Below are positions 20,015-40,480 of a stretch of DNA of 64,000 bases, in pieces. Numbering within the stretch: position 1 is the first letter of the stretch; each line of letters opens with the position of its first letter. The position numbers were made by a program, and so were the translations under genes. The notes below the pieces were generated by a model that did no database searches, was not told where the DNA came from, and saw only the letters and a list, made by a program, of their open reading frames with translations. The DNA lies in the NCBI RefSeq assembly GCF_019890615.1, contig NZ_JAINVZ010000023.1, positions 1-64,000 on the forward strand, written 5' to 3'. Source of the DNA: Streptantibioticus parmotrematis. Lineage in GTDB: Bacteria > Actinomycetota > Actinomycetes > Streptomycetales > Streptomycetaceae.

Positions 20015-21754
20015 ATGGCCCGGCCCAACGACGAGGTGGCGGCGGTCCTGCAGGAGTACGCCGACCTGCTCGCCATCACCGGCGGTGACGCGTTCAAGTC
20101 CCGCGCGTACGAGAAGGCGGCCCGGGCGCTCGCCGGCCACCCGGCGGACGTCTCGCGGATGGACGCCAAGGCGCTGCGGGCGGTCCCCAACGTCGGCGCG
20201 TCGATCGCCGAGAAGGTCGTCGCGTACTTCCGCGACGGCTCCGTCCCGGAGCTGGACCAGGCGAGGAAGAGCGTGCCGGCCGGGGTGCGGGAGCTGGTCG
20301 CGATCCCGGCGCTGGGCCCGAAGAAGGCCATGACGCTCTACCAGGACCTCGGCATCTCCTCGGTGGACGAGCTGGCCGGGGCGATCCGCTCGGAGCGGCT
20401 GCGCGGCCTGAAGGGCTTCGGGCCGAAGACCGAGGAGAACCTGCTGCACGGCATCGCGCTGCTGCGCCAGTCGGGGCAGCGCGTCCCGCTGGGCACCGCG
20501 ATGGCGGTCGCCGAGGAGGTGGTGGCCGCGCTCACCGAGGTGCCGGGGTGCGAGCGGTGCGCGTACGCGGGATCGCTGCGCAGGATGCGCGAGACCATCG
20601 GCGACGTGGACGTGCTGGTCGCGGCCGACGACTCCGGGCCTGTGATGGAGGCGTTCACCGCCCTGCCGTTCGTCACCGAGATCGTGGCGCACGGCGCCAA
20701 GAAGACCTCCGTACGCACCACCGAGGGGCTCCAGATCGACCTGCGCGTGCTGCCCGCGGACGCCTGGGGCGCCGGGATGGTGTACTTCACCGGCTCCAAG
20801 GCGCACAACGTCCACGTCCGGCAGATCGCCGTGCGCGACGGCCTGAAGCTGTCGGAGTACGGCCTGTTCGACACCGAGTCCGGCGAGCGGGTCGCCTCCG
20901 CGACCGAGGAGGACGTCTACGCGCGGCTGGGCCTGCCGTGGATCCCGCCGACGCTGCGCGAGGACCGCGGCGAGGTGGCCGCCGGGCTCGCGGGCGAGCT
21001 GCCGGACGTGGTGACCCGCGATGCCCTGCGCGGCGACCTGCACACCCACACCGACCTCACCGACGGCGTGGCCACGCTGGAGGAGATGGTCCTCGCGGCG
21101 TCGCGGCTCGGCTACGCGTACTACGCGGTCACCGACCACGCGCCGGACCTGTTCATGCAGCGGATGACCGACGCCAAGATGCTGGCGCAGCGCGAACGGG
21201 TGCGGGAGCTGGACGGCCGCCACCGGCGGATGCGGCTGCTGCACGGCACCGAACTGAACATCGGGCCGGACGGCGCGGTGGACTGGCCGCCTCAGTTCCT
21301 GGCGGGGTTCGACCTATGCGTGGCGTCGGTGCACTCGCACTTCGCCCTCTCGCGCGACGCGCAGACCCGCCGCCTGCTGCGGGCCTGCGAGAACCCGTAC
21401 GTCAACGTCATCGGCCATCCGACCGCCCGCCGCCTCGGCAAGCGCACCGGCATCGACGCCGACCTGGACGCGGTGTTCGCCGCCTGCGCCCGCACCGGCA
21501 CCGCGCTGGAGATCAACGGCCAGCCGGAACGCCTGGATCTGGGCGACGAGGAGATCCTGCGGGCGCGGCAGTACGGGGTGAGGTTCGCCGTGGACAGCGA
21601 CGCCCACTCCACGCCCGGCCTGGACTACGTGCGCTACGGCGTCGGCACCGCCCAGCGCGGCTGGCTCACCGCCGACGACGTGATCAACACCTGGCCGCTG
21701 CGCAAGCTCAAGCGCTTCCTGCGCAAGGAGGGCCGCGAGGAGACCTCGGGCTAG
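20015..21754 (+). CDS. polX: DNA polymerase/3'-5' exonuclease PolX
   Basis: 579 residues, the full bacterial PolX length. Order: helix-hairpin-helix 8-kDa domain (residues 1-90), second HhH (IPALGPKKAMTLYQDLG), fingers (LKGFGPKTEENLLHGI), and palm with the metal-binding pair in RRMRETIGDVDVLVAA. A third palm acid lies in LQIDLRVLPA. The C-terminal PHP domain has GDLHTHTDLTDGVATLEEM, AVTDHAPDLF, GTELNIGPDG, VASVHSHF, VIGHPTARRLG and VDSDAHSTPGLD. It is a gap-filling repair polymerase with an Mn-dependent 3'-5' exonuclease. Its last 4 bp overlap the convergent GH15 gene. Confidence 0.95.
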   Translation: MARPNDEVAAVLQEYADLLAITGGDAFKSRAYEKAARALAGHPADVSRMDAKALRAVPNVGASIAEKVVAYFRDGSVPELDQARKSVPAGVRELVAIPALGPKKAMTLYQDLGISSVDELAGAIRSERLRGLKGFGPKTEENLLHGIALLRQSGQRVPLGTAMAVAEEVVAALTEVPGCERCAYAGSLRRMRETIGDVDVLVAADDSGPVMEAFTALPFVTEIVAHGAKKTSVRTTEGLQIDLRVLPADAWGAGMVYFTGSKAHNVHVRQIAVRDGLKLSEYGLFDTESGERVASATEEDVYARLGLPWIPPTLREDRGEVAAGLAGELPDVVTRDALRGDLHTHTDLTDGVATLEEMVLAASRLGYAYYAVTDHAPDLFMQRMTDAKMLAQRERVRELDGRHRRMRLLHGTELNIGPDGAVDWPPQFLAGFDLCVASVHSHFALSRDAQTRRLLRACENPYVNVIGHPTARRLGKRTGIDADLDAVFAACARTGTALEINGQPERLDLGDEEILRARQYGVRFAVDSDAHSTPGLDYVRYGVGTAQRGWLTADDVINTWPLRKLKRFLRKEGREETSG

Positions 21755-23780: not shown

Positions 23781-24587
23781 ATGAAGCGACCGAGGTGGAT
23801 TCCGGAAGGGACGGATCAGGAGACGCCGAACGTCGCCCGGGTCTACGACTGCTACCTCGGCGGGTCGCACAACTTCGCCGCCGACCGGGAGATGGCCCGC
23901 AAGGCCGTGGAGCTGTGGCCCGAACTCCCCAAGATCATGCGCGCCAACCGGGGGTTCCTGCGGCGGGCCGTGCAGTACCTGGCGGAGCGGGGCTTCACCC
24001 GGTTCCTGGACATCGGCTCCGGTATCCCCACCTTCGGCGCGGTCCACGAGGTCGCCCGCCGGATCCAGCCGGATGCGCGAGTGGTCTACGTGGACATCGA
24101 CCCGGTCGCGGTCGCGCACAGCAGGCTGATCCTGGAGGGCGACGAGCGGGCGGCGGTGATCGAGGCGGACATGCGCGAGCCGCGCGCCCTGCTCGCGGAT
24201 CCGGCGGTGGCGGACCTGCTGGCGGCGGGCGAGCCGGTGGCGGTGCTGCTGGTGGCGGTGCTGCACTTCGTCCGCGACGAGGAGGACCCGGTCGGCATCG
24301 TGCGCGTGCTGCGCGACGCCATGCCGCCGGGCAGCGCGCTGGTGCTCTCCCACGCCTCGTTCGAGGGCCGCCCGGACCAGGCGGGCCCGCACCAGGACCT
24401 GTACGCGCGCACCCCGACCCCGTTGACGATGCGGTCCCGGGAGGACGTCGTGCGGCTCTTCGACGGTTTCGAGCTGATCGAGCCCGGGGTGGTCTACCTG
24501 CCCGAATGGCGTCCCGAGCGCCCGGAGTCGGTGGGGCCGCACCCCGAGCGCATGACCGGGCTGGCAGGGGTGGGGCGTCTGTCGTGA
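23781..24587 (+). CDS. DUF574-type SAM methyltransferase (second), coupled to a GGDEF-EAL gene
   Basis: A 268-residue paralogue of the protein at 8874-9686. It shares the N-terminal block NVARVYDCYLGGSHNFAADRE, the SAM loop FLDIGSGIPTFGAVHEVA, the VVYVDIDPVAVAHSRLIL strand, and LHFVRDEEDP and LFDGFELIEPGVVYLPEWRPE. It has no membrane segment. Its TGA overlaps the GTG of the next gene in a GTGA junction, so the two are very probably translated together. Confidence 0.9.
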   Translation: MKRPRWIPEGTDQETPNVARVYDCYLGGSHNFAADREMARKAVELWPELPKIMRANRGFLRRAVQYLAERGFTRFLDIGSGIPTFGAVHEVARRIQPDARVVYVDIDPVAVAHSRLILEGDERAAVIEADMREPRALLADPAVADLLAAGEPVAVLLVAVLHFVRDEEDPVGIVRVLRDAMPPGSALVLSHASFEGRPDQAGPHQDLYARTPTPLTMRSREDVVRLFDGFELIEPGVVYLPEWRPERPESVGPHPERMTGLAGVGRLS

Positions 24588-26725
24588 GCGCCGCACCGAC
24601 GGCGGGCCACGCCGCCGCGCAGGCCGGATTCGAGGAGGCGTGGGCCCGGCTGCTACGGGAGGGCCACGGGGCCGCGGTCCATCCGGGCACCCTCGGCCGC
24701 GTCGTGTCACGCACCATCGAACTGCTGGGCCGGGCACGGGATGCCGAACCGTTCGACCCGGCCCCCGCCGAGCAGGCCGGGGCGCTGCTGGTGGAGGCGC
24801 ACTTCACCGACGCGGCGGTGCTGGCCCGGGCCGTGGAACTGCTGCTGGGCCATCCGGCGGGCGAGCACGCCCCCAAGGTGGCCGGCGCGTTCGCGTCCGG
24901 CTGGACGGTGGCGCTGCGCGACCGCACGCTGCGCGAGCAGGAGGCGATCCGCCTCGCCGCCGACCTGGCCCGCAAGGGCGCGGAGAAGGCCCTGTACGCG
25001 TCGGAGGCGCGGTTCCGGGCGGTCTTCGAGAGCGCCGCGATCGGCATCGGCATCGGCGACGTGAACGGCAACATCCTGGCCGTCAACCGGGCGTTGCAGG
25101 AGATGTTCGGCGCCCGGCCGCAGGACATGCGGGACCTGCGGGTCCCCGAGCTGGTGCACCCGGAGGACACGCCCGGGGTGTGGGAGGCGTACGACGACCT
25201 GGTCAACGGCAGGCGCGAGCACTTCCAGTTCGACAAGCCGTACTACCGCCGCGCCGGCGGCGTGATCTGGACGCATCTGACGGTCTCGCTGATCCGGGAC
25301 GAGGAGGGCGTGCCGCGTTACCAGGTGGCGATGCTGGAGGACATCACCGACCGGCACCGGCTCCAGGAGCGGCTGCGCTTCCAGGCGACCCACGACCCGC
25401 TGACCGGGCTGCCGAACCGGGCGGAGTTCTTCGAGCGGCTGGAGCGGATCTTCGACTCGCCGGAGCCCGGTGCCCGGTTCGGGCTGTGCTCGGTGGACCT
25501 CGACGGCTTCAAGGCCATCAACGACAGCCTCGGGCACGAGACCGGCGACCAGTTGCTGGCGGCGGTCGCGGAACGGCTCGCCTCGACGGTGGCACCGCTG
25601 GGACACCTGGTGGCGCGGCTGGGCGGCGACGAGTTCGTGGTGCTGCTGGAGAGCTGCCTGGGGCACCAGGAGAGCGTCGCGGTGGCGAAGACGGTGCTGG
25701 ACGCGCTCTCCCAGCCGTTCCTGATCGGTGACCAGAAGCTCGCGGTGCGCGCGAGCGTCGGCGTGCTGGAACGCCCGGTCGCGGCGACCACCCCCGGGGC
25801 GGCCATGCGCGCCGCCGACCTGACGCTGTACCGGGCGAAGAAGGAGGGGCGGGGGCGATGGACGCTGTTCGACCCCAAGCGCAACGCGGTGGCGGTCAGC
25901 CGGTACGCGATGTCGGTGCGGATGCCGATGGCGCTGGACCGAGGCGAGTTCTTCATCGACTACCAGCCGTTGTGCTCGCTGCGGGACGGCTCGCTGGCCG
26001 CGGTCGAGGCGCTGGTGCGCTGGCGCCATCCCGAGCTGGGGGTCCTGGGACCGGACGAGTTCGTGGCGACGGCGGAGGAGACCGGGCTGATCATCCCGCT
26101 GGGCCGGTGGGTGCTGGAGCAGGCCTGCGACCAGGCGGCGCGGTGGGCGCGCCGGTTCGGTCCCGGGACGCCGAAGATGAACGTGAACCTGGCCGTGCGT
26201 CAGGCCAGGAACGCGGCGCTGGTCTCGGACGTCGACCGGGTGCTGCGCGGCACCGGTCTCGATCCCTCGGGGCTCCAGCTGGAGATCACCGAGAGCGCGG
26301 TGCTGGGGCCGCGCGACCACGCTTTGCAGGCGATGCACGCGCTGGTGGACATGGGGGTGTCGCTGACCGTGGACGACTTCGGCACCGGCTGGTCGAACCT
26401 GGCGTACCTGCGCGACCTGCCGGTCTCGGGGCTGAAGATCGCCGGGTCGTTCATCTCCGACGTGCACGACCGGCCGAGCCCGCACGACGGCGGCGACGGC
26501 GAGTTGCTCGGCTGGCGGATCGTCAGCGGCCTGGTGTCGCTGGCGCACACCCTGGGCCTGACGGTGACCGCCGAGGGCGTGGAGACCGCGGCGGACGCCG
26601 AACGGCTGCGGGCGATGGGGTGCGACTGGGCGCAGGGCTGGTACTACGGCCGGCCGACCCGGCCGGAGGAGATCACCCGGCGCATCGCGGAGGGGCTCGG
26701 TGACCCCCGGGTACGGCGCGCCTGA
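24584..26725 (+). CDS. PAS-GGDEF-EAL protein (cyclic di-GMP synthesis/degradation)
   Basis: 713 residues from GTG 24584. An N-terminal helical region of about 140 residues, a PAS domain (about 145-260, FESAAIGIGIGDVNGNILAVN), a GGDEF domain with intact GGDEF at 347-351 and THDPLTGLPNRAEFF, and an EAL domain with EAL at 475-477. EAL residues VNLAVRQ, ITES, DDFGTGWSNL, AEGVET and CDWAQGWYYGRP are present, but LKIDRSF reads LKIAGSF (Ala620). No RxxD inhibitory site stands five residues before GGDEF. It appears soluble. Cyclic di-GMP controls development in streptomycetes through BldD, so this may tune differentiation. Confidence 0.92.
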   Translation: MSAAPTAGHAAAQAGFEEAWARLLREGHGAAVHPGTLGRVVSRTIELLGRARDAEPFDPAPAEQAGALLVEAHFTDAAVLARAVELLLGHPAGEHAPKVAGAFASGWTVALRDRTLREQEAIRLAADLARKGAEKALYASEARFRAVFESAAIGIGIGDVNGNILAVNRALQEMFGARPQDMRDLRVPELVHPEDTPGVWEAYDDLVNGRREHFQFDKPYYRRAGGVIWTHLTVSLIRDEEGVPRYQVAMLEDITDRHRLQERLRFQATHDPLTGLPNRAEFFERLERIFDSPEPGARFGLCSVDLDGFKAINDSLGHETGDQLLAAVAERLASTVAPLGHLVARLGGDEFVVLLESCLGHQESVAVAKTVLDALSQPFLIGDQKLAVRASVGVLERPVAATTPGAAMRAADLTLYRAKKEGRGRWTLFDPKRNAVAVSRYAMSVRMPMALDRGEFFIDYQPLCSLRDGSLAAVEALVRWRHPELGVLGPDEFVATAEETGLIIPLGRWVLEQACDQAARWARRFGPGTPKMNVNLAVRQARNAALVSDVDRVLRGTGLDPSGLQLEITESAVLGPRDHALQAMHALVDMGVSLTVDDFGTGWSNLAYLRDLPVSGLKIAGSFISDVHDRPSPHDGGDGELLGWRIVSGLVSLAHTLGLTVTAEGVETAADAERLRAMGCDWAQGWYYGRPTRPEEITRRIAEGLGDPRVRRA

Positions 26726-27165: not shown

Positions 27166-27996
27166 ATGAGCACGCCCCTGCCCTCCCACGCGGTCCAGCG
27201 CGCCGCGCACGACGGCCGGCCGCTGCGCCGCGCGAGCGACCGCGTCGCCGAGCACCAGCCGCTGCGTCGCGCGACCGACGCCGCCGTGATCCGACGCACC
27301 GTCAGCCTGGTCATCCCCGCCCACAACGAGGCCCGCAACGTGCCGTGGGTCTTCAACCAGATCCCGTCCTGCGTCGACGAGGTGATCCTCGTGGACGGCG
27401 GCTCCGACGACGCCACGGTGCGGATGGCCGCGCACTGCCTGCCGACCGTGCGCAGCATCCAGCAGGACGGCCCGGGCAAGGGCGCCGCGCTGCGCACCGG
27501 GTTCCGGGCGGCCACCGGCGAGTACGTGGTGATGATGGACGCGGACGGCAGCATGTGGCCCGGCGAGATACCGCACTACCTGCACTTCCTCGACAACGGC
27601 TACGACTTCGTCAAGGGCTCCCGGTTCATCGCGGGCGGCGGTTCGCTCGACCTGACACGCGTCAGGTCGCTGGGCAACCAGCTGCTGCTCACCGTCGTCA
27701 ACCGCGTCTACCACGCCACCCTCACCGACCTGTGCTACGGCTTCTGTGCCTTCCGGCGCAGCTTCCTCGACGAACTCGACCCGCGTTCCGCCGGGTTCGA
27801 GATCGAGGCGGAGCTGATCGCGCACGCGCTGCGCTCCGGACTGCGGGTCGCGGAGGTGCCGAGCCTCGAACTTCCCCGCCGCAGTGGGCGTTCGCATCTC
27901 CACGCGGTCTCCGACGGCCGCCGGGTGCTGCGCACCCTGATCGCCGAACGCCCCGGCGCCCGGCGCTCCTCCCCCCTGGGGGCGGGGAAGCGATGA
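27166..27996 (+). CDS. GT2 family glycosyltransferase (polyprenyl-phosphate sugar transferase-like)
   Basis: A 276-residue protein from ATG 27166; no strong ribosome site is visible and GTG 27139 is an alternative. After a basic N-terminal tail of about 45 residues there is a GT-A fold: VSLVIPAHNEARNVPWVF, VILVDGGSDDATV, GPGKGAALRTGF and the metal-binding DXD in VVMMDADGSMWPGEI. It ends with a basic tail and lacks membrane segments. It resembles dolichol-phosphate mannose synthase-like enzymes that load a sugar on a lipid phosphate. It is first in a five-gene overlapping operon (ATGA junction with the next gene). Confidence 0.88.
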   Translation: MSTPLPSHAVQRAAHDGRPLRRASDRVAEHQPLRRATDAAVIRRTVSLVIPAHNEARNVPWVFNQIPSCVDEVILVDGGSDDATVRMAAHCLPTVRSIQQDGPGKGAALRTGFRAATGEYVVMMDADGSMWPGEIPHYLHFLDNGYDFVKGSRFIAGGGSLDLTRVRSLGNQLLLTVVNRVYHATLTDLCYGFCAFRRSFLDELDPRSAGFEIEAELIAHALRSGLRVAEVPSLELPRRSGRSHLHAVSDGRRVLRTLIAERPGARRSSPLGAGKR

Positions 27997-29348
27997 CCGG
28001 CCCCGGCCGACGCGCTCCGGCGGCCTGCCCCGGCCTCGCCGCCCGCGACTCGCTCTACACCCCCGCCCACGTCGTGGACGTGGACCTGGAGGCGCCCGGT
28101 GAGCCCCGCTCGCCCGGCGGGGCCAGGACCGACGCGCCGGGCGGACGCGTGTTGGCGTTGGTGCGGCTGCACGGGCACCCGCTCGGACTGGTCAGCGTCG
28201 ACGGTGACTTCACGGACACCGTGCGGCTCGGCCTCGCGCTGGCCGACGCCGCCCATCGCCACCTGGCCGCACCGCTCGCACCGCGGGTCGTGCGCCGGGC
28301 CGCACCGCCACGACTCCACGGGACGGCGGGCGCGCCCGCCGTCAGCGTGGTCGTCGCCACCCACGACCGGCCCTGGATGCTGCGGCGGTGCCTCGACTCG
28401 TTGCTGCGCTGCGACCACCCCTCGTACGAGGTGATCGTGGTCGACAACGCCCCCGCCGACGACGCCACCCGACAGCTGGTCGAAGACCGGTACCGGGACC
28501 GGGTGCGCTACCTGACCGAGCCGGTGCCGGGTCTCGGCCGGGCCCACAACCGCGGGCTCGCCGTGGCCCGCGGCCGCATCTGCGCCTTCACCGACGACGA
28601 CACCCTGGCCGACCCCGGCTGGCTGTCCGCGCTCCAGGACGCCTTCGACGACCCGGCGCACCGAGAAGGCAATGGCGGCGGCCCCGGCTGCGTGACCGGG
28701 CTGATCCTGCCCGCCGAGCTGGAGACGCCCGCGCAGTCCGCGCTGGAACGGCACGGCGGCTTCGGCAAGGGCTTCACCCCGCGCGCCTGGTCGCTGCGGG
28801 ACCCGCCGCCCGATCCGCTCTTCCCGTTCACCGCCGGGCGGTTCGGCTCCGGCGCCAACATGGCGTTCCGCACCGACGTCCTGCGTTCCCTCGGCGGCTT
28901 CGACCCGGCGACCGGCACCGGGACCCCCGCCCGCGGCGGCGACGACCTCCTGGCGTTCTTCCAGGTGATCCGTGCCGGGCACCGCGTCGTCTACCAGCCG
29001 GACGCCGTCATCTGGCACCGCCACCGCCGCACCGACGACGCTCTGGCCGCCCAGGCGTTCGGCTACGGCGCCGGGTTCGGCGCGTTCCTCGCCGCCGCGG
29101 TCCGGCACCGTCCCGGCACGCTGCCCGCTCTGCTGCGCCGCCTGCCGCGCGGCGTCGCCCACGCGGCGGCCAGGGCCCGGGCGCGCGCGGCCGCCGACGG
29201 TCCGTTGCCCGGACCGGCGGACGCCGCCGTGCTGACCCGCCTGGAACTACGGGGGCTGCTGTACGGGCCGTTCGGCTACCTGCGCAGCGTGCTCGCCGCC
29301 CGCCGCGCCGACCGTCTCCCCCGCTCCCCGGACCCGGTGGGTGCGTGA
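27993..29348 (+). CDS. GT2 family glycosyltransferase with extra N-terminal domain
   Basis: 451 residues from ATG 27993, overlapping the previous stop by 4 bp. Residues 1-105 form a separate domain without motifs I know. Residues 108-370 are GT2: VSVVVATHDRPWMLRRCLDSLL, VIVVDNAPADD, and metal-binding FTDDDTLADPGWL. A later acceptor-site region reads FGSGANMAFRTDVLRSLGGFD, followed by RGGDDLLAFFQVIRAG. The C-terminal 90 residues are Ala and Arg-rich. It probably adds a sugar to the growing repeat unit on the cytoplasmic face. The stop overlaps the next start (TGATG). Confidence 0.88.
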   Translation: MTGPGRRAPAACPGLAARDSLYTPAHVVDVDLEAPGEPRSPGGARTDAPGGRVLALVRLHGHPLGLVSVDGDFTDTVRLGLALADAAHRHLAAPLAPRVVRRAAPPRLHGTAGAPAVSVVVATHDRPWMLRRCLDSLLRCDHPSYEVIVVDNAPADDATRQLVEDRYRDRVRYLTEPVPGLGRAHNRGLAVARGRICAFTDDDTLADPGWLSALQDAFDDPAHREGNGGGPGCVTGLILPAELETPAQSALERHGGFGKGFTPRAWSLRDPPPDPLFPFTAGRFGSGANMAFRTDVLRSLGGFDPATGTGTPARGGDDLLAFFQVIRAGHRVVYQPDAVIWHRHRRTDDALAAQAFGYGAGFGAFLAAAVRHRPGTLPALLRRLPRGVAHAAARARARAAADGPLPGPADAAVLTRLELRGLLYGPFGYLRSVLAARRADRLPRSPDPVGA

Positions 29349-32300
29349 TGCCGATGGCCTCGCGCACCGCTCCCCCGGCGCCGCCGCAGGGCGCCACGCC
29401 CGCGCGGTCCTACCCGGCCGTGCTGCGCGGGCGGGTGCGCGCCGCGCTGTCGTACGAGCCGCTGCTGCGCAACGGCCATGTCCTGACGCTCAGTTCGCTC
29501 ATGACCGCGGGGCTCGGCGCGATCTTCTGGGTGCTGGCCACCCACTGGTACAGCGCGGCGACCGTGGGTCGCAGCTACGCCGTGATCGCCGCGGTGTCGC
29601 TGCTCGCGGGCGTCGGACAGCTCAATCTCGCCGACGTCCTGGTGCGTTTCGTTCCCACCGCCGGGCGCCACACCCGCCGGGTCGTGCTGCGCTGCTACGG
29701 GGCGTCCCTCGCGTGCACCGCGATGGTGGCCGCGTGCTTCCTCCTCGTGATCCCGGCCGTCACCCCGGGTCTGGACTTCCTGCGCGGGCCGGTCGCCGGT
29801 CCCTGCTTCGTGGCGGCGACCGCCGGGTACGCGCTGTTCATCGTGCAGGACGGCGCGTTGACCGGTCTGCGACGCACCCACTGGGTGCTGGGCGAGAACG
29901 CGTTGTTCGCCGTCGTCAAGACCGCGCTGCTGCCGCTGGCCGCCGGGCTGGTGTTCGCCTCCGGCATCCTGCTGTCGTGGACCGGGGCGCTGGCCGTCTC
30001 CCTGGTCGTGACCAACGTCTACCTGCTGCGCCACGCGGTGCCCGCGCACGAGCGCGCCGGCCCCGAACTCGGCGCGCCGCCCGCCCGCCTGCTGGGGTAC
30101 GCGGCGGCCGACTACGTGGGGGCGTTCTTCCGGCTCGCCGCGTACAACGTGGTGCCGTTGCTGGTCCTGGACGAGCTGGGGGACGCGAAGAACGCCTACT
30201 TCTCGATCGCCTGGGTCATCGCGTACACCCTCTACCTGGCCGCGTACAACATGGGCAGTTCGCTCATCGTGGAGGCGGCACACGCGCCGGAGCGGCTGGC
30301 CGAGCAGGCCCACCGGGTGCTGCGGCACTGCGGCGGGCTGCTGGTGGTGGGCGTGGTGGCCCTCTGGTTCTGCGGGCCGTGGCTGCTGTCGTTCTTCGGC
30401 GCCGCGTACGCGCGGGAGGCGACCGGGCTGCTGCGGCTGCTGGCGCTGTCCGCGCTGCCCAACCTGCTGCTGAACGTGGCCATCGACGTGGCGCGGGCCC
30501 GGCGGCGGCTGGCGTGGGCGGTGGCGTTGCAGGCGGTGCTGTGCGTGCTGGTGCTGGGGCTGACCGCCTGGCTGCTGCCTGTGATGGGACTGAACGGGGT
30601 CGGCGTGGCCTGGCTGGTGACCGAGTGCCTCATCGGCCTCGCGCTGCTGCTGACACTGCCGCGCTGGCTGCCCGCATCCCACGAGGAGACGGTCGCCGGG
30701 CCGCGCGGCGACAGGCCCGGGCGGCCGGAGGCGACCGGGGAGGCACCGGGCACGCTCAGCCTGACCGTCGTCATCTGCGCGTACACGCCGGAGCGTTGGG
30801 ACGACCTCGCCGACGCGGTCCGCTCGGTCCTGGAACAGCAGCACCCGGCCGACGAGATCCTCCTCGTGGTCGACCACTGCCCCGAGCTGGCCGAGCGGGC
30901 GGCGGCGGAACTGCGCGGCGTGCGGGTGCTGGTCAACACCGAACGCCAGGGTCTGTCCGGGGCCCGCAACACCGGTGTGGCCGCCGCCCGTTGCGACGTC
31001 GTCGCCTTCCTCGACGACGACGCGGCGGCCGAACCCGACTGGACGGCGCGGCTGCTGGCCGCGTACCGCGACCCGGCGGTACTGGGCGTGGGCGGCCTGG
31101 TGCGCGCGTGGTGGGAGACCGGGCGTCCGCCGTGGTTCCCGCCCGAGTTCGACTGGGTGGTCGGCTGCTCGTACCGGGGTCTGCCACGCACCCGCGGCGG
31201 CGTGCGCAACCTCATCGGCGCCAACATGTCCTTCCGCCGCGCCCACCTCCTCGCCGCGGGCGGCTTCCGCACCGACCTCGGGCGGGTCGGCACCCGGCCG
31301 CTGGGCTGCGAGGAGACCGAACTGTGCCTGCGCGTCGCCGCCCGCGACCCCGGCTCGACCCTGCTGTACGAACCGGCCGCCGCGGTACGCCACCACGTGC
31401 CCGCCGCCCGCACCACCCGCCGCTACTTCCGGGCCCGTTGCTACGCCGAGGGGCTGTCGAAGGCGGCCGTCGCGCGGCTCGCGGGCCCGCGCAGGGCGCT
31501 GTCCAGCGAACGCGCCTACCTGCGCTCGGCGTTGCCGCGCGCCGTCGTCCGCGCGCTGACCCCGGGCACCGACGCCGGGCCGCGCACCCTGGGCGCGCTG
31601 ACCATGGGCGTCGGCGCCACCGCGCTCGGCTACGCGGTCGGCCGCGTCCGCCGCCCGCACGACGTCCCGTCCGGCGAACGGACCCGACCGCGCTCGCGGG
31701 CACGGCTGTTCGCGCGGATCGCGCTGCCGCTCGCCGTGCTGCTGTGGCTGGTCTCGCTGCGCCACGTCGACCTGGGCGCGATGCGCGACCTCGGCCTGGT
31801 GCAGGTGCTGCCGGTCAGCTACTGGGCCGGTCTCCTGGTGCTCGCCGCCGGGTTCTGCGCCGCGCTGCGGGATCGCCGCACCTCGGGCTGGACGTACGCG
31901 GCGTTCGTCCTGGCGCTCATCGCGTTCCTGCACGCCACCCCCGCGCTGCTCTATCCCGAACTGCGGTACGCCTGGGCCTGGAAGCACGTGGCGGTCACCG
32001 ACGAACTGCTGCGCTACGGCGCCATCCCGCCGTCGTTCGGGCCGCTGGCGGTCTACGCCCAGTGGCCCGGGTTCTTCGCCCTCAACTACCTGGTGCTACG
32101 CGGCACCGGGCTCGCCTCACCGCTGTCGTACGCGTCCTGGTGGCCGGTGTTGACCAACGTCGCCCTGATCGCGCCGCTCCTGCTGCTCTACCGGTCCTTC
32201 AGCCGCAGCCGCAGGCTGGCGTGGGGCGGGGTGTTCGTCTTCTTCTGCTGCTCCTGGGTCGGCCAGGACTACTTCTCGCCGCAGGCGTTCGCATACGTGC

Positions 32301-33535
32301 TGTACGTGTGCGTGATCGCGCTGGTGGTGCGGCGGCTGCCGAGGCCCTGGGCTTCGCGGACCGCACCGGCGGTCGCCTACGCGGGCGACGCGGTGGCCGC
32401 GCGGCACGCCCGCTCCCGCACCGACCGCGAGGGCCGTGCCGTGGGCCGGGGGGCGCAACGGGCGCCGGGAGCAGGGTGGTTGCTCGCGCTGGCCCTGCCG
32501 ATCGGCGCCATCGTCTGCTCGCACCCGCTGACGCCGGTCATGCTGATCGGCACCCTGCTGGCGCTGGCGATACCGCGCCGCAACCGCCGGGTCGTGCTGC
32601 CGGTGCTGCTGCTGACGACCGCGCTGACGCTCGTCTGGGACGCGACCGAGGCACGCTCCTACCTGTCGCAGAACTTCCACGCCATGCTGCTGGGCCTCAC
32701 CCAGCCCGAGGCCAACGCCGGTTCCGGGCTGCTGGGGCTGACCGGGGTCTCCACCGGCCAGGTCGCGGTGGCCTGGGCGGACCGCGTGCTGTCCGGCGGT
32801 GTCCTGCTGCTCGCGGCGCTCGCGCTGCTGGTGCGTCCGGCACTGCGCCGCACCCCGCTGGCCCTGCTGGCGCTGGCGCCGCTGCCGTGGGTGGTCGCCA
32901 ACAGCTACGGCGGCGAGATGATCTTCCGGGTCTACCTGTTCGCGCTGCCCGCGACCGCGTTCGCCACCGCGACGCTGCTGCTGCGTCCGGCACTGACCAC
33001 CGCGGGCGCGGCCGGGTCCGTGCCGCGCGGCAGGCTGGGACGGCTGCGCGGGGCGGGCGTGCCGGTCCTGGTGGTCGCACTGCTGGCGGCACTGTCGCTG
33101 GCGTACTACGGCAAGGAGGACACCAACTACTTCACGCCCTCGGAGACCGCGGCGGCCCAGTGGCTGTACGCGCACGCGCCCCGCTTCTCGCTGATCGTCG
33201 CCGCGTCCGACAACTTCCCCTACGCGTACTCCGATTACGGCTACCACGACCGGCTGTGGCTGGACGAGGCGGCACCGGTCGACCAGCGGCTGCTGCTGCG
33301 CGACCCGGCCACGGAGCTGCGGGTGCTGAGCGGCGGCGGACCCGCCCGGCCGGTCTACCTGATCCTCACCCGGGCCCAGGAGGCGCAGGTCTCCTCGACC
33401 GGCGCGCTGCCCCCGGGCACCGTGCCGAGGATCGAGACCGCGCTCGCCGCCGACCCGGCGTCCTACCCGGTCCTCTACCGGGGGCCGGACGCGATCGTCT
33501 ACCGCGTCCTGCCCGCGTCGGCGGGAGGTCCGTGA
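29348..33535 (+). CDS. Giant flippase-GT2-polytopic membrane fusion protein
   Basis: One uninterrupted 1395-residue frame. Residues about 40-445 form a multi-spanning MATE/Wzx-type flippase (LSSLMTAGLGAIFWVLATHWY onward, about 12 segments). After a charged linker, residues about 471-770 form a GT2 domain (LTVVICAYTPERWDDLADAV, FLDDDAAAEPDW, VRNLIGANMSFRRAHLLAAGG, CEETELCLR). Residues about 784-1250 form a second polytopic membrane region, and the last 140 residues are soluble and probably extracellular (YYGKEDTNYFTPSETAAAQW onward). The last region resembles GT-C glycosyltransferases or Wzy-like polymerases in layout only. It could join synthesis, flipping and polymerisation of a lipid-linked glycan. 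Confidence 0.85.
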   Translation: MPMASRTAPPAPPQGATPARSYPAVLRGRVRAALSYEPLLRNGHVLTLSSLMTAGLGAIFWVLATHWYSAATVGRSYAVIAAVSLLAGVGQLNLADVLVRFVPTAGRHTRRVVLRCYGASLACTAMVAACFLLVIPAVTPGLDFLRGPVAGPCFVAATAGYALFIVQDGALTGLRRTHWVLGENALFAVVKTALLPLAAGLVFASGILLSWTGALAVSLVVTNVYLLRHAVPAHERAGPELGAPPARLLGYAAADYVGAFFRLAAYNVVPLLVLDELGDAKNAYFSIAWVIAYTLYLAAYNMGSSLIVEAAHAPERLAEQAHRVLRHCGGLLVVGVVALWFCGPWLLSFFGAAYAREATGLLRLLALSALPNLLLNVAIDVARARRRLAWAVALQAVLCVLVLGLTAWLLPVMGLNGVGVAWLVTECLIGLALLLTLPRWLPASHEETVAGPRGDRPGRPEATGEAPGTLSLTVVICAYTPERWDDLADAVRSVLEQQHPADEILLVVDHCPELAERAAAELRGVRVLVNTERQGLSGARNTGVAAARCDVVAFLDDDAAAEPDWTARLLAAYRDPAVLGVGGLVRAWWETGRPPWFPPEFDWVVGCSYRGLPRTRGGVRNLIGANMSFRRAHLLAAGGFRTDLGRVGTRPLGCEETELCLRVAARDPGSTLLYEPAAAVRHHVPAARTTRRYFRARCYAEGLSKAAVARLAGPRRALSSERAYLRSALPRAVVRALTPGTDAGPRTLGALTMGVGATALGYAVGRVRRPHDVPSGERTRPRSRARLFARIALPLAVLLWLVSLRHVDLGAMRDLGLVQVLPVSYWAGLLVLAAGFCAALRDRRTSGWTYAAFVLALIAFLHATPALLYPELRYAWAWKHVAVTDELLRYGAIPPSFGPLAVYAQWPGFFALNYLVLRGTGLASPLSYASWWPVLTNVALIAPLLLLYRSFSRSRRLAWGGVFVFFCCSWVGQDYFSPQAFAYVLYVCVIALVVRRLPRPWASRTAPAVAYAGDAVAARHARSRTDREGRAVGRGAQRAPGAGWLLALALPIGAIVCSHPLTPVMLIGTLLALAIPRRNRRVVLPVLLLTTALTLVWDATEARSYLSQNFHAMLLGLTQPEANAGSGLLGLTGVSTGQVAVAWADRVLSGGVLLLAALALLVRPALRRTPLALLALAPLPWVVANSYGGEMIFRVYLFALPATAFATATLLLRPALTTAGAAGSVPRGRLGRLRGAGVPVLVVALLAALSLAYYGKEDTNYFTPSETAAAQWLYAHAPRFSLIVAASDNFPYAYSDYGYHDRLWLDEAAPVDQRLLLRDPATELRVLSGGGPARPVYLILTRAQEAQVSSTGALPPGTVPRIETALAADPASYPVLYRGPDAIVYRVLPASAGGP

Positions 33536-33936
33536 TGCGTGTCGCCGCCCGTCTGCCGCTCGCCGTCGTCTGCTGGATCGGCCCGGCCGCGATGACCCTG
33601 CCCGCCGGATCCGGCCTGCGGATCGCCGCCGTGACGCTCGCCGTGCTGACGGTGCCCGGCGCGGCGGTGGTCCTGCGGATGGCGCCCGAGCGGGCCGCGG
33701 CGGGCCCCGACCCGGTCGGACGACGCACCCGCGGGCTCGTGCTGACCGTCGCGGTGAGCCTGGCCTACGCGGTGCTCGCGGGCCAAGTGCTGCTGCTCCT
33801 GGGCCGGTTCGCTCCGGAACGCGCCCTGATGGCGGCGGCCGCGCTCGGCACGGTGGTGGCCCTGTGGCCCCGGCGGCACGACACGGCCGCCCCCAGCGGA
33901 CAGGAGGCGCGCAGCGGACAGGGGGCGCGGCCATGA
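33535..33936 (+). CDS. Small membrane protein of the exopolysaccharide operon
   Basis: 133 residues from ATG 33535 in a TGATG overlap with the fusion gene. About four hydrophobic segments: LPLAVVCWIGPAAMTLPAG, IAAVTLAVLTVPGAAVVLRM, LVLTVAVSLAYAVLAGQVLLLL and LMAAAALGTVVALW. The C-terminal tail is polar. No family is recognised. The position between the fusion protein and a deacetylase, with overlaps on both sides, implies a role in the same glycan pathway. Confidence 0.75.
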   Translation: MRVAARLPLAVVCWIGPAAMTLPAGSGLRIAAVTLAVLTVPGAAVVLRMAPERAAAGPDPVGRRTRGLVLTVAVSLAYAVLAGQVLLLLGRFAPERALMAAAALGTVVALWPRRHDTAAPSGQEARSGQGARP

Positions 33937-34757
33937 CCCCGGTGCCCGTCTTCCTCTACCACGCGGTGACCGACGATCCGCCCGACTGGATCGCCCCCTA
34001 CGCGGTCACTCCCCGGGTCTTCACCGAGCAGTTGGACCGGATCGCCGACGCGGGGCTGACCGTCGTACCCCTGCGGCGGCTTGTGACCGCGCTGCGCGGC
34101 GGGACCCGACTGCCGCCGCGCTCGGCCGTGTTGACGTTCGACGACGGCTTCGCCGACTTCTACTGGACGGTCACCCCGCTGCTCACCGATCGCGGACTGC
34201 CCGCGACGGTGTACGTCACCACCGGCGCCGTGCACACCCCCGGCACCGGTCCCAACGGCAGCCTGCTGCCGCCCGCCGACATGCTCAACTGGCGCCAGAT
34301 CGGCACGCTCGACACCTTCGGCTTCGAGATCGGCGATCACACCGTCACCCACCCCCAGCTCGACACCCTCTCGGCCCGGCAGGTGTGGCACGAGGTCTTC
34401 GACAGCAAACGCAGGCTGGAGGACGCGCTGAGCCATCCCGTGTACTCCTTCGCCTACCCGCACGGCTACTCCAGCGCCTCGGTGCGCCGCGCGGTCCGCG
34501 AGGCGGGCTACACCTCGGCGGCCGCGGTCGGCAACGCGATCAGCTCCGCGACCGACGATCCGATGCGCATCGCGCGGCTGATGGTGCGCTCCGACACCAC
34601 GGCCGAGGCCTTCACCCGCTGGACCCGCTGCGCCGGCACCCCTGTCGCCCCTCTGCACGAGTCGCTGCGCACCCGGGGCTGGCGGATGTACCGCAGGGCA
34701 CGGGCGGTGGCCGGACGACCGGTCGGCGGCCCGCCCGGCCCGAGCACGCTGGAGTGA
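33933..34757 (+). CDS. NodB-type polysaccharide deacetylase
   Basis: 274 residues from ATG 33933, overlapping the previous stop (ATGA). NodB motifs are complete: LTFDDGFADFYW (catalytic Asp pair), the metal-binding HTVTHPQL, FAYPHGYSS and a C-terminal region with VRREAGY-like AVREAGYTSAAAVG. It begins PVFLYHAVTDDPPDW, typical of the subgroup that deacetylates extracellular N-acetylhexosamine polymers. No signal peptide is visible, so export or a cytoplasmic lipid-linked substrate is an open question. It is last in the operon; the convergent GH16 gene ends 48 bp later. Confidence 0.9.
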   Translation: MTPVPVFLYHAVTDDPPDWIAPYAVTPRVFTEQLDRIADAGLTVVPLRRLVTALRGGTRLPPRSAVLTFDDGFADFYWTVTPLLTDRGLPATVYVTTGAVHTPGTGPNGSLLPPADMLNWRQIGTLDTFGFEIGDHTVTHPQLDTLSARQVWHEVFDSKRRLEDALSHPVYSFAYPHGYSSASVRRAVREAGYTSAAAVGNAISSATDDPMRIARLMVRSDTTAEAFTRWTRCAGTPVAPLHESLRTRGWRMYRRARAVAGRPVGGPPGPSTLE

Positions 34758-34805: not shown

Positions 34806-35642
34806 TCAGTGCTGCCACACGTCCACCCAGCCCACCGACATCGCCGCCGAGTCGACTCCGGGCGGCGGTGGTGACGGGTAGCCGACCGCGAGGGTGAGCA
34901 GGACCTCCATCGGCACGTGGGGGATCTGCTGCGCCGAGGTCACCCGGAACCGGGGCGTGCCGTCCACGTACCAGGTCAGCGACGTGGGCTCCCAGTCGAG
35001 GGCGAAGACGTGGTAGCCGGCGGGGAAGTCCACCGGACCGTAGTGCCCGGCCGCGGACTGCTCGGTGCCGTCGTGTCCCTTCCAGTGCGTGGTCATCCGC
35101 ACCGTGGTGGTGCTGCCGAGGCCCTCGGCCACGTCGAGTTCGGGCGGTGTGTGGCGGGAGGCGGGCATCAGCCAGAAGGCGGGGAGCATGCCGCCCTGGG
35201 ACGGGATGCGCACGGCGGCGGCGAAGTAGCCGTAGGTGAAGGTGGAACGCGGCGTGGCGTTCCAGGAGTCACGGCCGGTGGAGACCATGCCGGAGGTCCA
35301 CGGGTAGGTGTGGCCGTCGGTGCCCTTGGTGGTGCGTCGCTGCGCGGTGAGGGTGAGCTTTCCGCCGCCCACGGTGACCTGGCCCGGCAGGTACCACTGG
35401 AGTTCGTGGTTGGTGCTGTTGGTGCAGCCCCCGCGGTTCCAGTCGTAGCAGGTGGTCCACTTCGCCGGGTCGAGCCTGCTGCCGCCGAAGTCGTCGGCGA
35501 ACACCTGGTGCCAGTGGCCCGGGGCGGCGGGGGCGGGCGGCGCCGGCGGAGTGGTCGCCGCCGGCGCGCCGCATCCGGCGGCGACCGCCAGCAGGCAGGC
35601 CGCCAGGGCGCGCAGCGCGGGCCGCGCGCGTCGCACGGTCAC
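34806..35642 (-). CDS. GH16 family endo-glucanase-like lipoprotein
   Basis: 278 residues from GTG 35642, which overlaps the upstream gene's TGA (GTGA). It has a basic start, a hydrophobic stretch and a lipobox ending AAGC near residue 24, so it is an exported lipoprotein. The jelly-roll domain has FADDFGGSRLDPAKW and the catalytic GH16 motif PPELDVAEGLG (ExDxxE), with FHVFALDWEPTSLTWYVDG-like text in the second half. It should cut beta-1,3 or 1,4-linked glycans outside the membrane. Facing the exopolysaccharide operon, it may trim or release the product. Confidence 0.92.
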   Translation of the reverse strand: MTVRRARPALRALAACLLAVAAGCGAPAATTPPAPPAPAAPGHWHQVFADDFGGSRLDPAKWTTCYDWNRGGCTNSTNHELQWYLPGQVTVGGGKLTLTAQRRTTKGTDGHTYPWTSGMVSTGRDSWNATPRSTFTYGYFAAAVRIPSQGGMLPAFWLMPASRHTPPELDVAEGLGSTTTVRMTTHWKGHDGTEQSAAGHYGPVDFPAGYHVFALDWEPTSLTWYVDGTPRFRVTSAQQIPHVPMEVLLTLAVGYPSPPPPGVDSAAMSVGWVDVWQH

Positions 35643-37037: not shown

Positions 37038-38267
37038 ATGCACGACTCAGCGCCCAGGCTCGACCCGAGGGTTCCGGCGCTGCTGGTGAAGGTCGGCCGC
37101 TATCCGCAGCACCACGGTGCCGTGGGGGTCGCCCGCAGCCTGGGGCGGGCCGGCGTGCCGGTGTACGCGATGGTCGAGGACCGCTACACGCCCACCGCGT
37201 TGTCGCGTTACATCACCGGCCGCTTCGTCTGGCCGACCAGCGGGCTCGAACAGCCCCGTCAGTTGGTCGCCGCCCTGGTGATCATCGGCCGGGCGATCGG
37301 GGTGCGCAGCGTGGCCGTGGCCACCGACGACGAGGCGGCCGTCCTGCTGGCCGAGCACGCGCCCCGGTTGTCGGAGCACTTCCTGCTGCCGCCGGTGCCG
37401 CGCGGTCTGCCGCGCAGGCTGGCGGGGAAGGCGGCGCTGTACGAGTTGTGCGTACGGCACGGCGTCCCGGCGCCGCGCAGTTGGGCACCGGCCGACCACG
37501 CGGAACTGCTGGCGGTGGGCCGGGAGTGGGGCTATCCGCTGGTGCTGAAGAACCGCGACCCGTGGACCAGGCTGAGCGACCCGGCGGTGCCCGGCACCGT
37601 CCTGGTGCGCAGCGAGGCCGACCTGCTCGCCCGCTGTCCGCACGAGGTGCGCGCGCCGCTGCTGGTCCAGGAGTACCTGCCGGCTCGGAGTTGCGAGGAC
37701 TGGATCACCCATCTGTACTGCGCGGCGGACGGCGCGACCCGGGTGGTCTTCACCGGCGTCAAGGAGCGTTCCTGGCCGCCGGGCGCCGGGGTCACCACGC
37801 GGGCCCGGGCCGTGGCCAACCCGGAGCTGGCGGCGCTGGCGATCCGGCTGTGCCGCCGCATCGGCTACAGCGGTGTCGCCGACCTCGACTGGCGGCTGGA
37901 CCTGCGCGACGGCCGCTACAAGCTGCTGGACTTCAACCCGCGCACCGGGGCGCAGTTCCGGCTCTTCGAGTCCGAACGCGGGGTGGACGTGGTGCGCGCG
38001 CTCCACCTCGACCTGTCCGGCCGCCCGATCCCGGTGGGCCGGCAGGTGCAGCCGAGGTCGTACGCGGTGGGCCAGCTGGACCTGCCGTCCGCGCTGGCGT
38101 GGGCGGCCCGGGAACACCGACTGCCCGAGTCGTTCCTGCCCCGGCGGCACACCGAACGCGCCTGGCTGTGCCATGACGACCCGGTGCCGGCGCTGGCCGA
38201 GGCGGTGCGGTTCACCGGCACGGTGGCGAGCCGGCTCGCGGCCGAGTGGCGGCGGGCGCGGGCGTGA
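37038..38267 (+). CDS. ATP-grasp carboxylate-amine ligase-like protein
   Basis: 409 residues from ATG 37038. An N-terminal domain (ALLVKVGRYPQHHGAVGVARSLG) precedes an ATP-grasp fold with the adenine-binding lysine segment YPLVLKNRD, VQEYLPARSCED, and the metal site RYKLLDFNPRTGAQFRLFE. Such enzymes form amide or ester bonds through an acyl phosphate. It has no membrane segment. It lies next to the exopolysaccharide island, divergent from the monooxygenase gene, and could amidate a uronic acid or attach an amino acid to the glycan; this is inference. Confidence 0.87.
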   Translation: MHDSAPRLDPRVPALLVKVGRYPQHHGAVGVARSLGRAGVPVYAMVEDRYTPTALSRYITGRFVWPTSGLEQPRQLVAALVIIGRAIGVRSVAVATDDEAAVLLAEHAPRLSEHFLLPPVPRGLPRRLAGKAALYELCVRHGVPAPRSWAPADHAELLAVGREWGYPLVLKNRDPWTRLSDPAVPGTVLVRSEADLLARCPHEVRAPLLVQEYLPARSCEDWITHLYCAADGATRVVFTGVKERSWPPGAGVTTRARAVANPELAALAIRLCRRIGYSGVADLDWRLDLRDGRYKLLDFNPRTGAQFRLFESERGVDVVRALHLDLSGRPIPVGRQVQPRSYAVGQLDLPSALAWAAREHRLPESFLPRRHTERAWLCHDDPVPALAEAVRFTGTVASRLAAEWRRARA

Positions 38268-39586: not shown

Positions 39587-40480
39587 TCACGGCAGGGCGG
39601 CAGGGTCGCCCAGCGCGTCGAGCAGGTCGCCGTGCCGTTCGACACGGTCGAGGACCTGGTCGGGGGTGAGGAGGAGCCGCCCCGGATCGCGGCAGGCCGC
39701 CACCTCGTCCCAGGTGACCGGCGCGGCGACGGCCGGGCGGTCCTTGAGCCGCAGGGTGTAGGGGGCGGCGGTGGTCTTGGCGGTGGCGTTCTGCGACCAG
39801 TCGATGAAGACCCGGCCGGGCCGTGCCGCCTTCGCCATCACGGCGGTCACCCGGCCCGGGTCCTCGGCGGCCAGGCGTTCCGCGAGCTTCTTGGCGTAGC
39901 CGCTCACGGCACGCTGCGGGGCGGGCTCGACGCACGCGTACAGGTGCAGGCCCTTGGAGCCGGAGACGACCGGGCAGGCGGTCAGCCCGTCGGCGGTCAG
40001 CTCCTCGCGCAGCCGCAGCGCCACCCGGCAGCAGTCGGTGAGGTCCGCGCCGGCCCCGGGGTCGAGGTCGAAGACCACGCGGTCGTGGGCGTCCGGGCCC
40101 GCGTCGGCGGTCCACTGCGGCACGTGGATCTCGTACGCGCCGAGATTGGCGACGGCCACCAGCGACGCGGTGGAGTCGACCACGACGTACGGCGCCGGTC
40201 CCTCGCTGCCGGTCACCTCGACGGTGCGCACCCAGTCCGGCAGCCCGGCGGGCGGGGTCTTGGCGTACCAGCGCTGCCCGCCCGGCCCCTCCGGAGCACG
40301 GACGAAGGAGGCGGGGCGCCCAGCGGTGTGCGGCACCATCACGGGGGCGATCCGCGCGTAGTACTGGAGCGCGGCGGCCTTGGTCTCCCCGGTCCGCGGG
40401 AACAGCACGCGGCCGAGGTGGGTGAGGACCAGACGGTGTCCCTCGACGTCGACGGCCTGGCGGTCGGTCGGCTCTGACAT
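39587..40480 (-). CDS. Stand-alone LigD polymerase domain (NHEJ primase-polymerase)
   Basis: 297 residues from ATG 40480. It is an archaeo-eukaryotic primase-type polymerase as in LigD: metal-binding VVFDLDPGAGADLTD, nucleotide-binding VVSGSKGLHLYACVEP, and RVFIDWSQNATAKTTAAPYTLR. There is no ligase or nuclease domain, and the length equals the isolated PolDom found in many actinobacteria. It fills and extends ends during Ku-dependent end joining. Ku and ligase genes are not in this window. It is convergent with the FUSC gene. Confidence 0.93.
   Translation of the reverse strand: MSEPTDRQAVDVEGHRLVLTHLGRVLFPRTGETKAAALQYYARIAPVMVPHTAGRPASFVRAPEGPGGQRWYAKTPPAGLPDWVRTVEVTGSEGPAPYVVVDSTASLVAVANLGAYEIHVPQWTADAGPDAHDRVVFDLDPGAGADLTDCCRVALRLREELTADGLTACPVVSGSKGLHLYACVEPAPQRAVSGYAKKLAERLAAEDPGRVTAVMAKAARPGRVFIDWSQNATAKTTAAPYTLRLKDRPAVAAPVTWDEVAACRDPGRLLLTPDQVLDRVERHGDLLDALGDPAALP

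What the first reader, a model, noticed from the sequence alone, without database searches (positions are those of the whole stretch)
29348..33535. Three-module fusion: lipid-glycan flippase, GT2 glycosyltransferase and polytopic membrane module in one chain
The sequence shows a single uninterrupted frame of 1395 codons with, in order, a Wzx/MATE-like multi-span region, a GT2 domain with FLDDDAA, and a second multi-span region with an extracellular C-terminal domain. In known polysaccharide systems (Wzx/Wzy) these are separate proteins. If translated as one chain it could pass a lipid-linked glycan directly from synthesis to flipping and polymerisation.
Basis: partly seen in the sequence, partly recalled or inferred. 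Interest (0 to 1): 0.72.

Follow-up and report, generated by a model that had tools for sequence, protein, structure and literature searches.

The report
Fused glycan-building, flipping and transfer protein
One gene of a Streptomyces-like soil bacterium joins in a single chain a sugar-adding enzyme, a flippase for lipid-linked sugars and an outer-face sugar transferase, parts that many relatives carry as separate genes, which suggests that the three work together as one machine.

Summary
In detail: 29348-33535 (+) is one open frame of 1395 aa with three modules. Module 1 is a MOP flippase (model's best PDB match WzxE, Z 33.8). Module 2 is a GT2 glycosyltransferase nearest AglG. Module 3 has no Pfam or NCBIfam match; its confident model has a GT-C_A fold (oligosaccharyltransferases, AftA, ArnT; Z up to 23.4), so it is probably a lipid-donor glycosyltransferase, not a Wzy-type polymerase. 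The genome shows no PF02397, PF04932 or PF02516 match.

In the sibling species the flippase is a separate gene overlapping the GT2-GT-C gene at GTGA. The window differs by a 78-bp deletion between CGGTCG repeats, which took stop and start, plus a 1-base indel. No ATG/GTG/TTG start of its own is left for GT2. Among relatives every pairing of the three modules occurs fused, and full fusions occur in two other lineages.

Best reading: an oligosaccharide is built on a polyprenyl carrier, flipped and transferred by one chain. Composition and fusion are well supported; en bloc transfer is inferred, and the junction's single base needs resequencing. New variant of the known multi-component transmembrane glycosylation systems.

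The parts
29348..33535 (+). fusion gene, 1395 aa: flippase + GT2 + GT-C-fold transferase
   Evidence: open frame; coding signature
29348..30688 (+). module 1 (aa 1-447), MOP-superfamily flippase
   Evidence: AlphaFold2 model pLDDT 90.6, WzxE Z 33.8 over 396 residues; PF01943 in 16 of 42 relatives at E<=0.1, not in the window's own sequence
30656..30758 (+). flippase/GT2 junction: 77 bases shorter than in the sibling, stop and start codon lost
30758..31657 (+). module 2 (aa 471-770), GT2 glycosyltransferase, AglG-like
   Evidence: PF00535 E 9.3e-24, over cut-off; NCBIfam AglG 209.6 bits, cut-off 440; DDD and E192 invariant in 27 relatives
31694..33532 (+). module 3 (aa 783-1395), GT-C_A-fold membrane glycosyltransferase, no Pfam family
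   Evidence: model pLDDT 90.2, pTM 0.91; OST, AftA, ArnT matches; no family match over cut-off
33116..33532 (+). C-terminal alpha/beta domain of module 3, presumably extracellular
   Evidence: helix/strand order of the model; side of the membrane inferred from GT-C relatives
27166..27996 (+). AglJ/DPM-like GT2, putative lipid-charging enzyme
   Evidence: PF00535; TIGR04182 123.6 bits, cut-off 325; similar sequences in 70 of 109 loci, GT2 cross-matches possible
27993..29348 (+). MftF-like GT2
   Evidence: PF00535; TIGR03965 100.6 bits, cut-off 280; 82 of 109 loci
33532..33936 (+). 134-aa hydrophobic protein of unknown function
   Evidence: no family over cut-off; similar in 7 of 109 loci
33933..34757 (+). 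polysaccharide deacetylase
   Evidence: PF01522 E 8.8e-25; 89 of 109 loci
34806..35642 (-). GH16 glycoside hydrolase
   Evidence: PF00722 E 3.8e-22; 48 of 109 loci

Best explanation
The gene makes one polypeptide that carries three steps of an extracellular glycan pathway. An AglJ-like GT2 (27166-27996) charges a polyprenyl phosphate with a first sugar; an MftF-like GT2 and the GT2 module of the fusion extend it on the cytosolic face; the WzxE-like flippase module turns the lipid-linked oligosaccharide to the outer face; the GT-C module takes it as donor and transfers it to an outer acceptor (a growing polysaccharide, or possibly a protein); the deacetylase and GH16 then modify or trim it. Shown: one open frame, module identity by profile or predicted fold, repeated fusion of the modules in relatives, recurring neighbours. 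Inferred: sugars, lipid carrier, order of steps, en bloc transfer, and hand-over between modules.
For: One open frame without a usable start for GT2. Flippase fold: WzxE Z 33.8. GT2 profile over cut-off. GT-C_A fold: yeast OST Z 23.4, AglB 22.4, PglB 17.7, AftA 17.5, ArnT 16.8. All pairings fused somewhere: flippase+GT2 in 1 ORF (L107), GT2+GT-C in 20 of 80 loci, flippase+GT-C in 8 of 29 loci, all three in window, L066, L067 and, with a kinase domain between, L101 and L125. Full fusion needs at least 3 changes on the tree. Where separate, flippase and GT2 overlap as ATGA/GTGA in 16 of 18 pairs, from 20 loci that I picked. Of 66 loci with 7 kb on both sides of module 3, 45 hold both other modules. 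AglJ-like and MftF-like GT2s and a deacetylase recur. No PF02397 or PF04932 match in the genome.
Against: No biochemistry. The AglG, AglJ and MftF resemblances all lie far below the curated cut-offs. The GT-C matches have rmsd about 4-7 A and 7-13% identity, and the usual acidic residue of the first outer loop is not clearly present; D885 (D/E in 70 of 71), D974 and E1190 (71 of 71) are candidates. In 58 of 80 loci module 3 stands alone in its frame, so fusion is not needed for function. Among the 66 loci with both flanks, 16 lack the GT2, 4 the flippase and 1 both. PF00953-type initiation and other Wzy families were not tested. The window's junction rests on one base.
Confidence: 0.5

Rival explanations
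1. A one-chain three-component side-chain system: a polyprenyl-phosphate monosaccharide is made on the cytosolic face, flipped by module 1, and module 3 adds single sugars to a polymer made elsewhere.
For: GT-A enzyme, Wzx/MATE-type flippase and GT-C enzyme are the parts of published three-component systems (passages of PMC11127046 and PMC8035078). ArnT and AftA, which use lipid-linked single sugars (recalled), are among the fold matches.
Against: The fused GT2 resembles AglG, a chain-extending enzyme, and not the DPM/GtrB type; a DPM/AglJ-like GT2 is a separate gene, so at least three GT2s serve the operon. The best fold matches are enzymes that transfer whole oligosaccharides, though the fold alone shows no function.
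Confidence: 0.28
2. A Wzx-GT-Wzy chain: module 3 polymerises lipid-linked repeat units.
For: Polysaccharide-type neighbours (deacetylase, GH16), and no other polymerase gene seen in the operon. Polymerisation by a GT-C_A enzyme cannot be excluded.
Against: GT-C_A fold nearest OST, AftA and ArnT; no PF04932 and no PF02397 in the genome. Absence of Wzy structures from the listed fold matches excludes nothing by itself.
Confidence: 0.12
3. The fusion in the window is a sequencing or assembly error, or a recent pseudogene step; the system is normally two or three proteins.
For: The sibling (92-95% identical) has two genes here, and the frame change rests on a 1-base difference beside a C run.
Against: The 78-bp deletion also removed the stop and the GT2 start, so without the extra base GT2 would have no ATG/GTG/TTG start. 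dN/dS is low in all modules, though a very recent break would not show in it. Full in-frame fusions exist in other lineages.
Confidence: 0.1

Closest known systems
Multi-component (three-component) transmembrane glycosylation systems: GT-A enzyme + flippase + GT-C enzyme (Citrobacter youngae pentofuranose system with GT136; GacI/GacK/GacL), seen as passages of PMC11127046 and PMC8035078
   Same: The same three kinds of part, with a MATE/Wzx-type flippase in both cited systems
   Different: Separate proteins there, one chain here; donors there are single sugars; the GT2 here resembles AglG; module 3 has no family in Pfam or NCBIfam
Haloarchaeal Agl N-glycosylation (AglJ, AglG, AglR flippase, AglB); roles recalled, papers seen as listing and abstract starts only
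   Same: AglJ-like and AglG-like GT2s, a flippase, and an AglB/STT3-like fold of the transferase
   Different: GT2 scores far below the equivalog cut-offs; no PF02516 match and no WWDxG motif in 71 relatives
Wzx/Wzy-dependent polysaccharide pathway
   Same: WzxE-like flippase and polysaccharide-modifying neighbours
   Different: No PF04932 or PF02397 in the genome; transferase of GT-C_A fold
Actinoplanes missouriensis imp/wps/gsf clusters (PMC13390465, passages)
   Same: Actinomycete clusters with GT2 enzymes and Wzx or GtrA transport genes, needed for the sporangium matrix
   Different: Described with separate proteins; no fused chain appears in the passages; homology to this family was not tested

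Membership tests
MOP flippase (Wzx type), module 1 | MOP fold | tested here: met
   WzxE Z 33.8, MurJ and MATE Z 21-31
MOP flippase (Wzx type), module 1 | PF01943 profile match | tested here: inconclusive
   16 of 42 relatives at E<=0.1, best 1.5e-9; none in the window sequence
MOP flippase (Wzx type), module 1 | flips a lipid-linked sugar | not testable with these tools
   needs an assay
GT2 / GT-A glycosyltransferase, module 2 | PF00535 over cut-off and DxD-type acids | tested here: met
   84.7 bits against 23.3; DDD invariant in 27 relatives
AglG equivalog, module 2 | NF041394 over its cut-off of 440 bits | tested here: not met
   209.6 bits
GT-C_A superfamily, module 3 | GT-C_A fold | tested here: met
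   OST, AglB, PglB, AftA, ArnT, Pmt matches at Z 15-23
GT-C_A superfamily, module 3 | catalytic acid in an outer loop | tested here: inconclusive
   D974 and E1190 invariant, D885 nearly so in 71 relatives; their place in a catalytic site not mapped
Oligosaccharyltransferase STT3/AglB/PglB | PF02516 match | tested here: not met
   0 matches in the genome at E<=0.001; control rings in 4 of 14 genomes
Oligosaccharyltransferase STT3/AglB/PglB | WWDxG motif (recalled) | tested here: not met
   0 of 71 relatives
Wzx/Wzy pathway | Wzy polymerase (PF04932) | tested here: not met
   0 matches in the genome, control rings in 9 of 14; other Wzy families not tested
Wzx/Wzy pathway | initiating phosphoglycosyltransferase | tested here: inconclusive
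   no PF02397 in the genome, control rings in 9 of 14; PF00953 not tested
Multi-component transmembrane glycosylation system | GT-A enzyme, flippase and GT-C enzyme together | tested here: met
   all three in one chain
Multi-component transmembrane glycosylation system | GT-A enzyme makes a polyprenyl-phosphate monosaccharide donor | tested here: inconclusive
   fused GT2 is AglG-like; the AglJ/DPM-like GT2 is a separate gene

The most novel reading that the evidence does not exclude
A bacterial counterpart of the archaeal Agl pathway in which extension, flipping and en bloc transfer of a polyprenyl-linked oligosaccharide are done by one polypeptide, with a GT-C family not yet in Pfam as the transferase; in relatives whose parts are separate they form a true complex.
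Probability: 0.3. Interest if true: 0.8.

Novelty: new variant of a known kind. Interest (0 to 1): 0.56.

Why it matters
Whether the glycosyltransferase, flippase and outer-face transferase of one glycan pathway work as a complex is hard to show. Here they are fused in every pairing in different lineages, and fully fused in at least three, so that one expressed chain makes the question testable. The work also points to a large GT-C-fold family without a Pfam or NCBIfam model (571 confirmed loci in one capped scan, in several phyla).

Tried and rejected
Module 3 as a Wzy polymerase: GT-C_A fold, no PF04932 in the genome. Wzy, WaaL or RodA structures are not among the 50 rows shown, which alone excludes nothing. 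Module 3 as a protein oligosaccharyltransferase proper: PF02516 and WWDxG not met. Weak Pfam names for modules 1 and 3 (INSIG, DUF6594, DUF4131) lie below cut-off or in 1-2 members and were set aside. Profile searches of PDB sequences with modules 1 and 3 found no credible relative. Rfam: no match in the window at gathering scores. A phosphotransferase (APH) partner, present in 28 of 80 loci and in the flippase's frame in 11 of these, has no match in the window at E<=0.001 (profile built from five of those loci). Plasmids: 7 distant relatives of module 3, none covering 80%. Literature: searches list no paper on a fused flippase-GT2-GT-C chain; I saw listings, abstract starts and passages of four papers, no full text, and most subscription journals are not held. 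The c-di-GMP lead was not carried further.

Limits of the counts: the 80 loci are the best of 571, so shares are not population frequencies. Seven rows were dropped before the tree as duplicates; six share contig lengths with kept loci, but L050 (G005) is a different genome and was dropped wrongly. The tree is the quick method, with weak forks and long branches, and does not prove independent origins. One search scored at most 10 candidates a genome, so misses there are not firm. The 109 loci hold duplicates and the window's own locus, and GT2 proteins cross-match. Residue numbers are one too low; those are used.
Full report
Observation. The frame at 29348-33535 (+) is open for 1395 codons and starts on the last base of the upstream gene's stop codon. 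It has the highest summed codon-position score in the window, which is also its longest coding frame. The genome is 7.4 Mb in 83 contigs, 99.99% complete by the tool's figure. The nearest named relative of module 3 is Streptomyces sp. ICBB 8177, 95% identical.

Modules. Module 1 has no Pfam match over cut-off itself, but 16 of 42 relatives match PF01943 at E<=0.1. Its AlphaFold2 model (42 rows, pLDDT 90.6, pTM 0.87, 12 long helices) fits WzxE best (Z 33.8, 396 residues, rmsd 3.6), then MATE and MurJ proteins. Module 2 is a GT2 enzyme, nearest the haloarchaeal AglG model at about half its cut-off. Module 3 has no Pfam or NCBIfam family over cut-off and no PDB relative by sequence. Its model (71 rows, pLDDT 90.2, pTM 0.91) fits GT-C enzymes: yeast OST Z 23.4 (449 residues, rmsd 5.0), archaeal AglB 22.4, PglB 17.7, AftA 17.5, ArnT 16.8, Pmt4 16.5. 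Most of these matches begin near model residue 60, so two helices precede the shared core. Invariant in 71 rows are, among others, Y874, W876, W878, K879, H880, Q973, D974, Y975, Q979, H1059, Y1187, E1190, R1194 and E1266.

How the window's fusion arose. In the sibling the flippase ends in a TGA that overlaps the GTG of the GT2-GT-C gene. The window is 77 bases shorter there: one 78-bp stretch between two CGGTCG copies is missing, with stop and start, and one base is gained just upstream, which brings the two frames together. No ATG, GTG or TTG remains in frame between residues 424 and 507. Linker third positions are G/C in 28 of 30 codons, and dN/dS against the sibling is 0.15-0.19 (NG86) in each module. 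The fusion therefore looks real and young, but it hangs on one base that only resequencing can settle.

Fusion in relatives. In these, module 3 is alone of the three in its frame in 58, joined to GT2 in 20, and to flippase and GT2 in 2, Rhodococcus sp. CH91 and Mycolicibacterium elephantis, where an APH kinase domain lies between flippase and GT2. One locus, Streptomyces massasporeus L107, joins flippase and GT2 without module 3. Of 61 genomes searched around the window's own, 25 match. In 29 loci taken from these and the sibling, 8 join the flippase directly to module 3, one of them a paralogue in this genome (L020), and two, from G043 and G046 of another family of the order, have the full three-module frame; in that genus 2 of 10 genomes match. 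On a tree of 101 rows the full fusion needs at least 3 changes, GT2+GT-C 7 and flippase+GT-C 1. Where flippase and GT2 are separate neighbours, 16 of 18 pairs (from 20 loci that I picked) overlap as ATGA or GTGA; in the other two, L114 and L117, an in-frame ATG lies 8 bases before the stop. Of 66 loci with at least 7 kb on both sides of module 3, 45 hold both other modules, 16 the flippase only, 4 the GT2 only and 1 neither. This is indirect but strong evidence that the three act together.

Surroundings. The operon seems to run 27166-34757 with overlapping genes: an AglJ-like GT2, an MftF-like GT2, the fusion, a 134-aa hydrophobic protein and a deacetylase; a GH16 gene faces it. In 109 loci (duplicates included) similar sequences occur in 70 for the AglJ-like GT2, 82 for the MftF-like GT2, 89 for the deacetylase, 48 for GH16 and 22 for the PAS-GGDEF-EAL protein of 24584-26725; because GT2 proteins cross-match, the first two are upper bounds. 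G046 (L067) has a similar order: MftF-like GT2, fusion of 1420 aa, a small gene, deacetylase, a relative of the window's 37038 gene, and a GH16-like gene just below cut-off. The paralogue locus L020 has a small GT2, an AglG-like GT2, a deacetylase, the flippase-GT-C fusion and a gene with a marginal GH39 match.

What it is not. The genome has no match to PF02397, PF04932 or PF02516, while the 14 control genomes ring in 9, 9 and 4. WWDxG occurs in 0 of 71 relatives. So it is neither a textbook Wzx/Wzy set nor an STT3 protein by the features tested; PF00953 and further Wzy families were not tested.

Mechanism. I take the chain to be the core of a glycan pathway on a polyprenyl carrier: charging by the AglJ-like enzyme, extension by the MftF-like and fused GT2 modules, flipping by module 1, transfer by module 3 to an outer acceptor, then deacetylation and trimming. 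That GT2 lies in the cytosol follows from the helix numbers of module 1 and the presumed outer C-terminal domain of module 3 (inference). En bloc transfer is my preferred but unproven reading; single-sugar side-chain transfer, as in published three-component systems (passages of PMC11127046 and PMC8035078), is the main rival.

Novelty. The parts and their separate arrangement are known. In searches I saw no paper on the one-chain form. I call it a new variant of a known kind.

Noticed in passing
L020:6054-9779 (G000:C23): A paralogue in the same genome joins flippase and GT-C module directly in one frame of 1242 codons, with the AglG-like GT2 as a separate upstream gene.
   Followed up: partly
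L086, L101, L105, L125, L126, L144, L145, L146, L149, L150, L152: An APH-family kinase domain shares the flippase's frame in 11 loci from Actinomycetota, Chloroflexota, Deinococcota and others; 17 further loci of the 80 have it outside the flippase frame. Its role in the glycan pathway is unknown.
   Followed up: partly
L107:12166-14802: Flippase and GT2 are fused without the GT-C module in Streptomyces massasporeus.
   Followed up: no
window 24584-26725: A PAS-GGDEF-EAL protein upstream of the operon recurs in 22 of 109 loci, a hint of c-di-GMP control.
   Followed up: partly
plasmid hits H1-H7: Distant relatives of the GT-C module lie on plasmids of rhizobia, Deinococcus and actinomycetes, none covering 80% of it; where annotated the match is a hypothetical protein.
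   Followed up: no
window 37038-38267: A protein with a weak ATP-grasp-like match (PF02786) whose relatives recur near this system in 33 of 109 loci.
   Followed up: no
window 20015-21754 and 39587-40480: Ordinary neighbours: a DNA polymerase X/PHP protein and a LigD-type primase-polymerase.
   Followed up: no
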